From assembly GCA_949294335.1 (NCBI GenBank), contig CASFGO010000030.1, forward strand, positions 1 to 64,000: a stretch of 64,000 bases of DNA, read 5' to 3'. This DNA comes from an uncultured bacterium. GTDB taxonomy: Bacteria > Cyanobacteriota > Vampirovibrionia > Gastranaerophilales > Gastranaerophilaceae. Numbering within the stretch: the stretch's first letter is position 1; each line of letters begins with the position of its first letter. Shown piece by piece: positions 25,631 through 59,924 of this stretch. Position numbers and translations under genes: made by a program. The notes under the pieces are model-generated. The model had not been told where the DNA came from. It did not search any database and worked only from the letters and a program-made list of their open reading frames with translations.

Positions 25631-26035
25631 TTGGAATACAAATTAATAAACATGAAAGTCTTTGGCGATGAGAGAGGGAAATTAGTTTCACTAGAAGGTG
25701 GAATGAATATACCTTTTGATATCAAACGTGTTTATTATATTTTCGATACTTTACCTGATCAAGAACGTGGCAAACACGCACACAAAGAATTGGAACAAAT
25801 AATTGTTGCGATGGACGGAGCATGTCAATTTGTATTAGATGATGGCAATACAAGAGAAGAAGTTTGGTTGAACCGTCCTGACATTGGGTTATATATCGGG
25901 AAAAATATGTGGCGAGAAATGCAACATTTTTCTTACGGTTGCAAATTAATGGTATTAGCAAGCACACATTATGATGAAAAAGAATATATCAGGGATTATG
26001 ATGAATTCTTGAAAGAAGTTAAGGGTAAAAAGTGA
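25631..26035 (+). CDS. fdtA: dTDP-4-keto-6-deoxyhexose 3,4-ketoisomerase, FdtA/QdtA type (copy 1)
   Basis: This 134-residue cupin matches the FdtA/QdtA/WxcM family: [29 protein letters not shown], then [12 protein letters not shown] with the active-site His pair, and [34 protein letters not shown]. It converts dTDP-4-oxo-6-deoxyglucose to the 3-oxo isomer that the transaminase FdtB aminates. The TTG at 25631 is used because GGAG precedes it and it matches the ATG start of the second copy at 38600. By my count the two copies are about 94% identical in protein. Whether the product is the fuco or quinovo isomer cannot be told here. Confidence 0.9.
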
Positions 26036-29651: not shown

Positions 29652-30745
29652 TTAAATTTTTAGATTTAGAAAAAATAAATAACCGTTTTAGAGATGAGAT
29701 TGATTCAAGGATTAAAACAATTCTTGATAAAGGTTGGTATTTGCAAGGGGAAGAAAATGAAATCTTTACTAAAAACTTTGCTCAATACTGTGGGACAAAA
29801 CATTGTATTGGAGTAGCAAACGGACTTGATGCACTTAATCTTATTATAAAAGCTATGGGATTTACTGCAGGAGATGAAATCATTGTTCCTGCAAATACAT
29901 ATATTGCATCTATTCTTGCAATTACTCAAAATGGGTGTACTCCCGTTCTTGTTGAACCTGATATCAATACATATAATATCAATCCAGATTTAATCGAAGA
30001 AAAAATTACATCAAGAACTAAAGCAATAATGGTTGTACATCTTTATGGACAAGCTGTACAAATGGAAAAAATATGGGACCTTGCTAAAAAATATAATCTT
30101 AAAGTTATTGAAGATTCTGCCCAAGCTCATGGTGCTGGAATAAATGTTGAAGGGGAAATAAAAAGAGTTGGCAACCTATCTGATGCATCAGGTTTTTCTT
30201 TCTATCCAGGGAAAAATCTAGGTTGTATGGGAGATGGAGGAGCAGTTACAACCAATGATGATGAATTAGCTCAAAAAATCAAAGCTATAGCGAACTATGG
30301 TAGTGATAGAAAATATCATCATATATATAAAGGAGTAAACTCTCGTCTTGATGAAATTCAAGCTGCTGTATTAGATGTAAAATTAAAATATTTAGATAAA
30401 GATAACCAAAGACGTAGAGAAATTTCTAAATATTATCGAGAAAATATCAAGAACAAAAAAATAATCTTACCTGAAACATACAACGAACATTCTCATGTTT
30501 GGCATGTTTTTGTTGTAAGGACAAAAGAAAGAGATAAATTCCAACAATATCTATCTGATAATGGAATCCAAACTATTATCCATTATCCAACACCACCACA
30601 CAAACAAGAATGTTATAAAGAATGGAATAATTTGTCTTTCCCAATAACAGAAGAAATACACAAAACTATAATTAGTCTACCAATCTCTCCTGTTATGACT
30701 GATGAAGAAGTTAAAAAAATTGTTGAAGTAGTTAATAAATATTAA
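29648..30745 (+). CDS. fdtB: dTDP-3-keto-6-deoxyhexose aminotransferase, FdtB/QdtB type (copy 1)
   Basis: This 365-residue, PLP-dependent DegT/DnrJ/EryC1-family enzyme has [11 protein letters not shown] (PLP-binding Asp), then [24 protein letters not shown] with the catalytic Lys in PGKNLG, and [24 protein letters not shown]. It adds an amino group at C3 of the ketosugar made by FdtA. A second copy at 45849 differs at about 19 positions. The glutamate it uses could come from the glutamate synthase upstream. The start at 29648 overlaps the previous stop by four bases. Confidence 0.92.
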
Positions 30746-38610: not shown

Positions 38611-39004
38611 ACTTATTGATATGAAAGTATTCGGAGATGAAAGAGGCAAATTAGTTTCACTAGAAGGTGGAATGAATATACCTTTTGATATCAAACGTGT
38701 TTATTATATTTTCGATACTTTACCTGAACAAGAACGTGGCAAACACGCACACAAAGAATTGGAACAAATAATAGTTGCGATGGACGGAGCATGTCAATTT
38801 GTATTAGATGATGGCAATACAAGAGAAGAAGTTTGGTTGAATCGTCCTGATGTTGGGTTGTATATCGGGAAAAACATGTGGCGAGAAATGCGACATTTCT
38901 CTTACGGTTGCAAATTAATGGTATTAGCAAGCACACATTATGATGAAAAAGAATACATCAGAGATTATGACGAATTCTTGAAAGAGGTTAAGAATATTTA
39001 CTAA
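38600..39004 (+). CDS. fdtA: dTDP-4-keto-6-deoxyhexose 3,4-ketoisomerase, FdtA/QdtA type (copy 2)
   Basis: This second copy of the cupin isomerase at 25631 has 134 residues and about 94% protein identity by my count. The differences are scattered, plus a changed last four residues (KNIY against KGKK). The same KHAHKELEQ active-site block is present. The strong ribosome site AAGGAGGGCTA lies inside the end of the GT2 gene. Here it is followed by an acyl-carrier module rather than by fdtC, so the sugar it helps make may be acylated differently. Confidence 0.9.
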   Translation: MNYKLIDMKVFGDERGKLVSLEGGMNIPFDIKRVYYIFDTLPEQERGKHAHKELEQIIVAMDGACQFVLDDGNTREEVWLNRPDVGLYIGKNMWREMRHFSYGCKLMVLASTHYDEKEYIRDYDEFLKEVKNIY

Positions 39005-45848: not shown

Positions 45849-46949
45849 ATGATTAAATTTTTAGATTTAGAAAAAATAAATAACCGTTTTAGAGATGAGA
45901 TTGATTCAAGAATTAAAACAATCCTTGATAAAGGTTGGTATTTGCAAGGGGAAGAAAACGAAATTTTTACTCAAAACTTTGCTCAATACTGTGGAACAAA
46001 ACATTGCATAGGAGTTGCAAATGGACTTGATGCACTTAATCTTATTATTAAAGCGATGGGGTTTGGTGTAGGAGATGAAATAATAGTTCCTGCAAATACA
46101 TATATTGCATCTATTCTTGCTATTTCTCAAAATGGGTGTACTCCTGTTCTTGTTGAACCTGATATCAACACATATAATATCAATCCAGATTTAATAGAAG
46201 AAAAAATTACATCAAGAACTAAAGCAATAATGGTTGTTCATCTCTACGGACAAGCTGTACAAATGGAAAAAATATGGGAGCTTGCGAAAAAATATAACCT
46301 AAAAATCATAGAAGATTCCGCACAAGCTCATGGTGCAGGGGTAAATGTTGAGGGAGAAATAAAAAGAGTCGGCAATCTATCTGACGCATCAGGTTTTTCT
46401 TTCTACCCTGGGAAAAATCTAGGTTGTATGGGAGATGGTGGAGCTGTTACGACCAACGATGATGAATTAGCTCAAAAAATCAAAGCTATAGCAAATTATG
46501 GAAGTGATAGAAAATATCACCATATTTATAAAGGAATAAACTCTCGTCTTGATGAAATCCAAGCTGCTGTATTAGATGTAAAACTAAAATACCTAGATAA
46601 AGATAACCAAAGACGTAGAGAAATTTCTAAATATTATAGAGAAAATATCAAGAACGAAAAAATAATCTTACCGAAAACATACAACGAACATTCTCATGTT
46701 TGGCACGTTTTTGTTGTAAGAACACAAGAGAGAGATAGATTCCAACAATATCTATCTGATAATGGGATACAAACAATTATCCATTATCCAACACCGCCAC
46801 ACAAACAAGAAGCATATAAAGAATGGAATAATTTGTCATTCCCAATAACAGAAAAAATACACAAAACTATAATAAGTTTGCCTATTTCTCCTGTTATAAC
46901 TGATGATGAAGTTAAAAAAGTTGTTGAGGTTGTTAATAAGTATGAATGA
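45849..46949 (+). CDS. fdtB: dTDP-3-keto-6-deoxyhexose aminotransferase, FdtB/QdtB type (copy 2)
   Basis: This 366-residue PLP enzyme is about 95% identical by count to the copy at 29648, with long runs of identical DNA at the 5' end. It has the same [25 protein letters not shown] and [16 protein letters not shown] motifs. Together with the fdtA copy at 38600 it makes the second cluster able to form the 3-amino-3,6-dideoxy sugar on its own. The DNA similarity means the two clusters can recombine by homology. Confidence 0.92.
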
Positions 46950-56168: not shown

Positions 56169-56181
56169 AATTTTAGGGTAG

Positions 56182-56242
56182 TACCTTATTACCTCCGTCT
56201 GTACACGCTTTTTACTAAGAAAACGGCAGAGAAAGGAGGTGA
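56182..56242 (+). promoter_or_regulatory. Leader hiding the ribosome site of peptide 1
   Basis: TTACCTCC (about 56189-56196) is complementary to GGAGGTGA at 56235-56242, and CGTCTG behind it can pair with the CAGAG before the ribosome site. The very strong Shine-Dalgarno AAAGGAGGT would therefore lie in a stem in the full-length RNA. Such sequestering is usual in type I toxin mRNAs. Confidence 0.6.
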
Positions 56243-56247
56243 TAAAC

Positions 56248-56346
56248 ATGAAGTTAAGTTTTATACCACTTGTCAATTTTCTAATTGATAAGTATAAAAC
56301 AAAAGCTCCAGTAGTTGAGATACTGGAACTTTTAATTAAAACATAA
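56248..56346 (+). CDS. 32-residue peptide, candidate type I toxin (locus 1)
   Basis: The ATG at 56248 follows AAAGGAGGTGATAAAC, the strongest ribosome site in the window. The peptide begins MKLSFIPLVNFLIDKYKTK and ends APVVEILELLIKT; it is amphipathic with two hydrophobic stretches. I know no homologue. The RNA context makes it a candidate toxin: the leader can hide the ribosome site, a 3' hairpin follows, an antisense promoter lies just beyond, and an antisense terminator sits within the coding sequence. A second locus at 59710 shares this layout with a different peptide. Confidence 0.65.
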   Translation: MKLSFIPLVNFLIDKYKTKAPVVEILELLIKT

Positions 56347-56405
56347 CTTTTAGGGTACTAAGTCAAGCTCTAACGAAGTTGCATTTCTTTAGGGCTTGCC
56401 CCTAT
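56297..56405 (-). ncRNA. Predicted antisense RNA to peptide 1 (candidate antitoxin)
   Basis: On the minus strand, TTGATT (56434-56439) and TATAAT (56412-56417) are 16 bases apart and give a start near 56405. The RNA would cover the peptide's 3' hairpin and the second half of its coding region. It would then stop at an intrinsic terminator whose arms are TCCAGTA/TACTGGA (56307-56313, 56321-56327), extended by AAAAG/CTTTT and followed on the minus strand by a T-run. Length is about 110 nt. Confidence 0.6.
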
Positions 56406-56410
56406 GTTTT
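56351..56410 (+). terminator. 3' hairpin of peptide-1 mRNA
   Basis: CAAGCTCTAA then GAAG (about 56364-56378) pairs with CTTTAG then GGCTTG (about 56387-56398). The outer TAGGG (56351-56355) can close on CCCTA (56400-56404), and T residues follow. The same outer and inner pattern recurs downstream of peptide 2. Confidence 0.65.
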
Positions 56411-56524
56411 TATTATAATTCATTTATACAAGAAATCAATAGGAATAATTATCTTATAGGTTGAATTTAAGCTTTAAGTATAGTACCGTATAATAAGTAG
56501 AAAATAGTTATGAGGGAAGTCTGA

Positions 56525-59621: not shown

Positions 59622-59650
59622 TTGACAAATACTGAAAAATCGTAAATAAT
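59622..59650 (+). promoter_or_regulatory. Antisense promoter of small-peptide locus 2
   Basis: A consensus TTGACA (59622-59627) and AATAAT (59645-59650) are 17 bases apart, aimed across the 3' end of the minus-strand peptide gene at 59710. The start would be about 59657, next to CAGGGTGAAGCC. Confidence 0.7.
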
Positions 59651-59656
59651 AAAAAT

Positions 59657-59770
59657 GCAGGGTGAAGCCTTGTAAGAAGTAGTTTTTCTTTAAAGGCTTT
59701 CTTCACACCCTACAACCAAATAATGATAATTCTTAAAACCGCTATAATTACCGTTATAGTGGTTTTTATC
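59657..59770 (+). ncRNA. Predicted antisense RNA to peptide 2 (candidate antitoxin)
   Basis: Transcription from the promoter at 59622 would copy the complement of the peptide's 3' hairpin and most of its coding sequence. It would stop at an intrinsic terminator inside that sequence: AAAACCGCTATAA (59736-59748) pairs with TTATAGTGGTTTT (59754-59766), followed by more T residues. The length is about 113 nt, the same as in locus 1. Confidence 0.65.
59659..59712 (-). terminator. 3' hairpin of peptide-2 mRNA
   Basis: Read on the minus strand, TAGGGTG (starting at the stop codon) closes on CACCCT, with AAAGCCTT and AAGAA inside pairing with TTCTT and AAGGCTT. This copies the outer AGGG/CCCT and inner AAGC/GCTT layout of the hairpin after peptide 1. 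Confidence 0.65.
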
Positions 59771-59784
59771 ACTTTTTGAATCAT
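59710..59784 (-). CDS. 24-residue hydrophobic peptide, candidate type I toxin (locus 2)
   Basis: The ATG (59782-59784) follows AAAGGAGGCAATCACT on the minus strand. The peptide starts MIQKVIKTTITVIIAVL and ends RIIIIWL: a short basic head and one membrane helix, as in known type I toxins such as Ibs, Ldr or TxpA-like peptides. Upstream, GCTTCC near 59838-59843 can pair with the GGAGGC of the ribosome site. The mRNA is expected to start close to AGGGTA (about 59854-59849), downstream of TAAAAT/TATAAT boxes at 59863-59878. The antisense RNA at 59657 overlaps it. Confidence 0.7.
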   Translation of the reverse strand: MIQKVIKTTITVIIAVLRIIIIWL

Positions 59785-59924
59785 AGTGATTGCCTCCTTT
59801 CTTGACCGATTTCTTCAAAAATTCGTGTGCCAAGTGGAAGCGTGTGCTTACCCTGCAAATTCATTTTATCATATTATATTAATTTTGCATATATTTTCTG
59901 TTTTTATATATATTTATTTTTTGA

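What the first reader, a model, noticed from the sequence alone, without database searches (positions are those of the whole stretch)
59622..59880. Candidate type I toxin-antitoxin locus 2 with a membrane peptide
On the minus strand, a 24-residue peptide (59710-59784) with a basic head and one run of Ile/Val/Leu, behind AAAGGAGGC, looks like a pore-type toxin. A consensus TTGACA-17-AATAAT promoter fires across its 3' end. The antisense RNA meets an intrinsic terminator (AAAACCGCTATAA against TTATAGTGGTTTT) inside the coding sequence. The mRNA 3' hairpin starts at the stop codon and is closed by AGGGTG/CACCCT.
Basis: partly seen in the sequence, partly recalled or inferred. Interest (0 to 1): 0.88.

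Follow-up and report, generated by a model that had tools for sequence, protein, structure and literature searches.

The report
Palindromic membrane-peptide toxin and antisense RNA
In uncultured gut relatives of cyanobacteria, a tiny membrane-peptide gene, probably a self-poison, is written so that its reverse strand also ends the RNA that keeps it silent; the same RNA frame carries many different peptides across about a hundred genomes and one phage.

Summary
The window is from a Gastranaerophilales-type MAG. The locus is one member of a family with a constant RNA chassis: leader, buried Shine-Dalgarno, 3' hairpin, near-consensus antisense promoter. The payload is a swappable 21-32 aa hydrophobic or amphipathic peptide. 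The genome has five copies; the second in the window is at 56173-56416 (+). A leader covariance model hits 107 of 286 genomes of the order and nothing credible elsewhere in the phylum. One full copy sits in a contractile-tailed phage, Dulem virus 31. Three points go beyond the finding. (1) Intrinsic terminators for the antisense RNA are embedded in the toxin coding sequences: 93% of 99 distinct genes against 11% of synonymous recodings. (2) A covarying long-distance helix joins the leader to the stop-codon region. (3) Different peptide classes share the chassis, and copies within the genome encode different peptides. No Rfam, Pfam or NCBIfam family matches. I rate it a new variant of a known kind: a new type I-like family, not reported in Gastranaerophilales in the papers searched. 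Toxicity, transcription and antitoxin action remain inferred.

The parts
59863..59871 (-). Predicted toxin promoter, extended -10 (TGATAAAAT); weak -35
   Evidence: Sequence; 8 of 12 consensus bases here, family mean 9.6 of 12
59657..59856 (-). Predicted toxin mRNA, about 200 nt, from GCAGGGT to ACCCTGC
   Evidence: Fold -71.5 kcal/mol, z -7.1; leader model R1 hit E 3.2e-13
59850..59856 (-). 5' arm of P1 (GCAGGGT), pairs with the 3' end
   Evidence: MFE; swap test; counts
59842..59846 (-). 5' arm of P2 (CACAC), pairs with GTGTG after the stop codon
   Evidence: MFE; helix covaries in the family, 95.6% of cells paired
59836..59841 (-). Anti-Shine-Dalgarno GCTTCC
   Evidence: Pairs with GGAGGC in the MFE at all transcript lengths tested
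59829..59834 (-). 5' arm of the leader middle stem (CTTGGC)
   Evidence: Covarying stem in 51 leaders
59801..59806 (-). 3' arm of the leader middle stem (GTCAAG)
59792..59800 (-). Shine-Dalgarno AAAGGAGGC
   Evidence: Sequence; conserved in A1 and A2
59710..59784 (-). Toxin-like peptide ORF, 24 aa, MIQKVIKTTITVIIAVLRIIIIWL
   Evidence: frame conserved across the family
59735..59766 (+). Intrinsic terminator of the antisense RNA, inside the toxin coding sequence
59704..59708 (-). 3' arm of P2 (GTGTG), next to the stop codon
59657..59712 (-). mRNA 3' region: AGGGTG/CACCCT hairpin, whose distal strand can pair instead with the 5' end (P1)
59622..59650 (+). Antisense promoter TTGACA-17-AATAAT
59657..59770 (+). 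Predicted antisense RNA (antitoxin), about 113 nt; covers the 3' UTR, stop codon and most of the coding sequence, not the Shine-Dalgarno
   Evidence: Inferred from promoter and terminator positions
56173..56416 (+). Second copy of the same chassis in the window (toxin unit)
   Evidence: R1 hit E 1.8e-11; sequence
56248..56346 (+). Its 32 aa peptide MKLSFIPLVNFLIDKYKTKAPVVEILELLIKT
56302..56333 (-). Its antisense terminator, inside the coding sequence
   Evidence: -16.1 kcal/mol; synonymous recoding z -5.3
56412..56439 (-). Its antisense promoter TTGATT-16-TATAAT

Best explanation
A chromosomal type I toxin-antitoxin-like module. The minus strand makes a ~200 nt mRNA for a 24-residue membrane peptide. 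The mRNA locks itself: an upstream GCUUCC pairs with the Shine-Dalgarno, the leader pairs with the stop-codon region, and the 5' end pairs with the 3' end. A strong promoter beyond the mRNA 3' end makes a ~113 nt antisense RNA that pairs with the 3' UTR and coding region and ends at an intrinsic terminator written into the palindromic hydrophobic codons. The antisense RNA would have the mRNA degraded (RNase III) or untranslatable; when it is scarce the mRNA refolds, for example by the alternative 5' hairpin GGUAAGC/GCUUCC that captures the anti-Shine-Dalgarno, and the peptide is made and damages the membrane. Shown by sequence and comparison: the elements, their conservation, the covarying helices, and selection on synonymous codons for the terminator. 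Inferred: both transcripts, toxicity, antitoxin action, the activation step, RNase III.
For: Fold z -7.1. Conservation. Covariation in A2: score 0.353 against 0.166 shuffled and at most 0.129 when slid; 15 of 25 pairs with compensatory changes. Leader stem: 0.451 against 0.176. Strand asymmetry: P2 has 14 G-U and no A-C cells in the mRNA sense, so it works in mRNA; the coding palindrome has 18 cells that are G-U only in the antisense strand against 8 the other way, so it leans to the antisense RNA. Terminators in 93% of 99 coding sequences against 11% of recodings; antisense fold z mean -3.3, 88 of 99 below -2. Promoters. Intact ORFs. Shine-Dalgarno paired in 91 of 95 leaders.
Against: No RNA or protein data. 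Purifying selection in the reading frame is mild (pN/pS 0.62; shifted frames 0.71 and 1.17) and confounded by the palindrome. Truncation at any point left the Shine-Dalgarno paired in the MFE, so release by 3' trimming, as in AapA and Hok, is not reproduced in silico. Shuffle and swap tests are inflated by relatedness. P1 is fully complementary only in part of the family.
Confidence: 0.8

Rival explanations
1. A small membrane peptide with a regulatory or signalling role (not a toxin), held down by a cis-antisense RNA.
For: Toxicity was not tested; small hydrophobic peptides can be regulators; amphipathic classes such as MGLGFFLILDFIIKSLKEKAPELELLELFLNS are not plain single-helix peptides.
Against: Several unrelated peptide sequences share one locking RNA chassis with a strong antisense promoter, which fits interchangeable toxins better than a specific regulator; scattered presence, tandem copies and a phage copy.
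Confidence: 0.13
2. A structured non-coding RNA or a mobile miniature element; the ORF is incidental.
For: Multicopy; 5' and 3' ends complementary (GCAGGGT/ACCCTGC) like short terminal repeats; palindrome in the middle.
Against: ORFs intact in 118 of 126 copies against 23% in shuffles, hydrophobic 109 of 126 against 2%; conserved Shine-Dalgarno, start spacing and two promoters; no Rfam family; the terminal pairing is matched between ends of the same copy.
Confidence: 0.04
3. The coding-sequence palindrome acts mainly in the toxin mRNA (for example as a translation brake), not as an antisense terminator.
For: It also folds in the sense strand and lies in the mRNA MFE; the sense fold is the more stable in 33 of 99 copies.
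Against: Antisense fold more stable in 60 of 99; U-tract on the antisense 3' side in 93%; wobble asymmetry 18 to 8 favours the antisense strand.
Confidence: 0.12

Closest known systems
aapA/IsoA type I family (Helicobacter, Campylobacter)
   Same: Short hydrophobic toxin; mRNA locked by 5'-3' long-distance pairing; local anti-Shine-Dalgarno hairpins; several chromosomal copies (PMC6733600).
   Different: Here the antisense promoter lies beyond the toxin 3' end and the antisense RNA covers 3' UTR and coding sequence, not the Shine-Dalgarno; its terminator is in the coding sequence. No shared sequence was recognised.
TxpA/RatA and BsrG/SR4 (Bacillus subtilis)
   Same: Convergent promoters with 3' overlap; likely RNase III route (PMC4147584 for RatA).
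   Different: RatA does not overlap the coding region (PMC4147584); those toxins are 38-59 aa and on prophage-type elements (partly from memory); no palindromic coding sequence that I know of.
MsoT1/MsoA1 (Microcystis)
   Same: Same phylum; antisense RNA predicted to bind the 3' end of the coding region and the 3' UTR (PMC12390103).
   Different: 63 aa toxin with two helices, unrelated sequence; no long-distance lock or chassis family described.
Ibs/Sib (Escherichia coli)
   Same: Very short (18-19 aa, from memory) hydrophobic toxin in several chromosomal copies.
Hok/Sok
   Same: Self-locked mRNA with 5'-3' pairing and refolding.
   Different: Sok targets the leader; Hok is about 50 aa (from memory); no sequence relation found by Rfam search.

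Membership tests
Type I toxin-antitoxin (general kind) | Small hydrophobic peptide gene with its own promoter and ribosome site | tested here: met
Type I toxin-antitoxin (general kind) | Cis antisense RNA gene with promoter and terminator overlapping the toxin mRNA | tested here: met
   As sequence signals only:
Type I toxin-antitoxin (general kind) | Toxin primary transcript folded so that the Shine-Dalgarno is hidden | tested here: met
   Predicted: 91 of 95 leaders, covariation
Type I toxin-antitoxin (general kind) | Peptide is toxic and the antisense RNA neutralises it | not testable with these tools
   Needs expression assays
aapA/IsoA | 5'-3' long-distance interaction in the toxin mRNA | tested here: met
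   P1 and P2
aapA/IsoA | Shine-Dalgarno released by 3'-end trimming | tested here: not met
   Shine-Dalgarno stays paired in every truncated MFE; in silico only
aapA/IsoA | Homologous toxin or RNA sequence | tested here: inconclusive
   No Rfam, Pfam or NCBIfam match, but I did not align AapA itself; not filed as a member
TxpA/RatA | Antitoxin overlaps only the toxin 3' UTR | tested here: not met
   The antisense terminator lies inside the coding sequence
Ibs/Sib | Antitoxin covers the whole coding sequence and ribosome site | tested here: not met
   Predicted antisense end about 59770, before start codon and Shine-Dalgarno
MsoT1/MsoA1 | 63 aa toxin with two predicted membrane helices | tested here: not met
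   24 aa with a single hydrophobic run
Hok/Sok | Match to the sok RNA or a Hok protein model | tested here: not met
   No Rfam hit, no Pfam hit

The most novel reading that the evidence does not exclude
A type I toxin-antitoxin superfamily whose toxin genes are dual-coded: the hydrophobic codons are a palindrome that is also the antitoxin's terminator, so that toxin, antitoxin end and antitoxin specificity change together. The constant RNA chassis lets unrelated peptides be swapped in, giving several mutually insulated pairs per genome, some carried by phages.
Probability: 0.4. Interest if true: 0.8.

Novelty: new variant of a known kind. Interest (0 to 1): 0.7.

Why it matters
The papers found describe type I systems in Proteobacteria, Firmicutes and Tenericutes and, since 2025, a candidate in Microcystis (PMC12390103); none of the papers found reports one in Gastranaerophilales, an uncultured gut lineage. 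The family gives a natural experiment: the same RNA switch carries different peptides, and synonymous codons are visibly selected for a terminator on the other strand. That makes it possible to test how a membrane toxin and its antidote's terminator can share the same bases, and whether the peptide diversity keeps co-resident pairs from cross-talking. The palindrome-plus-leader signature could serve to search other lineages for unannotated 20-30 aa toxins.

Tried and rejected
Mobile miniature element: rejected, ORF and promoters conserved. Incidental ORF: rejected. Pfam, NCBIfam and Rfam membership: none; the permissive Rfam hits (SNORD65, mir-268) are below their gathering scores and biologically out of place. 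Spread beyond the order: the one phylum hit, G413, has neither ORF nor antisense promoter and is a false positive; hits in Aneurinibacillus, Syntrophales and Flavobacteriales and one IMG/VR contig are pattern coincidences. Plasmid hits (Piscirickettsia, 40 nt) match the palindrome only. Two further viral contigs patterns found nothing. A first, too strict terminator scorer missed many sites and was replaced. In-silico 3' trimming to release the Shine-Dalgarno did not work.

Full report
What was checked. The minus-strand RNA of the locus folds at -71.5 kcal/mol, z -7.1. Reading outside the given coordinates, the mRNA 5' end (GCAGGGTAAGCACACGCTTCC) is the key missing piece: its first seven bases pair with the 3' end, CACAC pairs with GTGTG beside the stop codon, and GCTTCC pairs with the Shine-Dalgarno.

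Conservation. A DNA search finds the locus in 5 of 8 genomes of the genus at 90-99% identity (G001 is cut at a contig end) and at 70-80% identity across the family. Named hits in public genomes are mostly MAGs of Candidatus Gastranaerophilales/Melainabacteria. A covariance model of the leader finds five copies in the own genome: two in the window, a tandem pair at C30:81953 and 82279, and one at C26:6130. It hits all 8 genus genomes, of which G004 and part of the other hits are weak, and 107 of 286 genomes of the order, 105 of them in the window's family. In a phylum-wide sample the only hit outside the order is a false positive. Genome G302 of another family has four divergent copies with a 36-37 aa peptide and again a palindrome in the coding sequence; G303 of a third family has one.

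Chassis and payload. All copies share the leader (AGGGTA..GNNCC..CACACG..AAGAAATCGG..AAAGGAGG), the stop-proximal AGGGTxxxAAG box, the 3' hairpin and the antisense promoter. The peptides fall into classes, by my grouping: IIKTVITVIITVLQIIIYWL; DKIIMLLLAFSIAVIALKLL; RELIKKALAILELLIRLI; KSAIKLLIALL; SITEKALWLILLIIITL; and 32 aa forms ending KAPELELLELFLNS. Four of the five own-genome copies carry clearly different peptides; the fifth is a second ITEKALWL-type. Longest shared runs between own copies in the antisense-covered part are 7-17 nt.

Dual coding. Synonymous recoding that keeps each peptide destroys the antisense-strand fold: real -21.0 against -10.1 kcal/mol on average, 88 of 99 with z below -2. 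A hairpin of -8 kcal/mol or better with a U-tract exists on the antisense strand in 93% of coding sequences against 11% of recodings. The U-tract corresponds to the Ile-Lys (ATA AAA) codons at the basic head. Stems differ between classes (AACCGTTATAA, AGTGCTATCA, AGCTCTAG, AATGCTATTACTGC, AGCTCCAG), so this is not one inherited sequence. Wobble pairs place the palindrome preferentially in the antisense RNA (18 to 8 cells) and the leader-stop helix in the mRNA (14 to 0). The tool's own counts agree. Caveat: related sequences inflate the shuffle controls; the slid controls do not have that fault.

Promoters and translation. The antisense promoter is stronger than the toxin promoter (11.1 against 9.6 consensus bases of 12; TTGACA perfect in 76 of 100), the imbalance expected of a repressed toxin; the -10 was partly fixed by how the units were cut out, the -35 was not. 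ORFs are intact in 118 of 126 copies; several copies are broken by frameshift or lost start (L026, L048 and L151 among them), as expected of toxin genes that can decay. The Shine-Dalgarno is paired in 91 of 95 leaders; freeing it costs about 8 kcal/mol in the model. A 5' hairpin that would capture the anti-Shine-Dalgarno is weakly supported by a swap test (z -2.9), so the activation step is a proposal.

Site history and mobility. The window copy sits between a hypothetical 365 aa gene and a response-regulator-like gene followed by anmK. Near relatives have at the same site one or two tandem copies: G005 and G006 both MIQKV and MNREK payloads, G002 only MNREK; in G007 the neighbour gene is there without the module. 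Flanks of other copies match mainly housekeeping families (dnaN, pfk, dnaJ), with a few phage-like families. A complete copy (leader, MNNVTIKIAITVIIAILQIILHCL, antisense promoter) lies in the genome of Dulem virus 31 from lemur faeces, among tail genes (model score 60.9 bits). I did not find it in plasmids.

Known relatives. It works like the self-locked type I systems aapA/IsoA and hok/Sok (PMC6733600), with an antisense arrangement closer to TxpA/RatA and BsrG/SR4 (PMC4147584) and to the predicted MsoA1 (PMC12390103). It matches no known family by sequence, and each specific family fails at least one feature. The literature searches found no report of a type I system in Gastranaerophilales; the library lacks most subscription papers, so this is not proof of novelty.

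Verdict. Observation confirmed; interpretation supported at the level of sequence and evolution; function to be tested at the bench.

Noticed in passing
L190:3905-4150 (PP511318.1, 17873-18118): A complete unannotated copy of the module in the phage Dulem virus 31. The record is classified as Microviridae although it encodes tail sheath, tube and baseplate proteins over 35.8 kb, so the taxonomy of the record looks wrong.
   Followed up: partly
   Followed up: yes
L034:909-1718 (-) (G222:C22): Three tandem copies with two payload classes but nearly the same antisense promoter, which suggests payload exchange or gene conversion within arrays.
   Followed up: no
L185, L187, L188, L189 (G302): Divergent chassis with a peptide such as MKVKFAVSERELLILVIVILLLYGKKDLVEILSLLLH in another family of the order; its end resembles the 32 aa class.
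   Followed up: partly
L057, L071, L073, L098: Records named Brachyspira, Muribaculaceae and Fusobacterium carry the module; the contig of L098 has the same length as a contig of family member G125, so the names look wrong.
   Followed up: partly
window 25779-25817 and 38748-38786; 30597-30624 and 46798-46825: Near-identical coding stretches repeated about 13 and 16 kb apart, which points to duplicated genes in the window.
   Followed up: no
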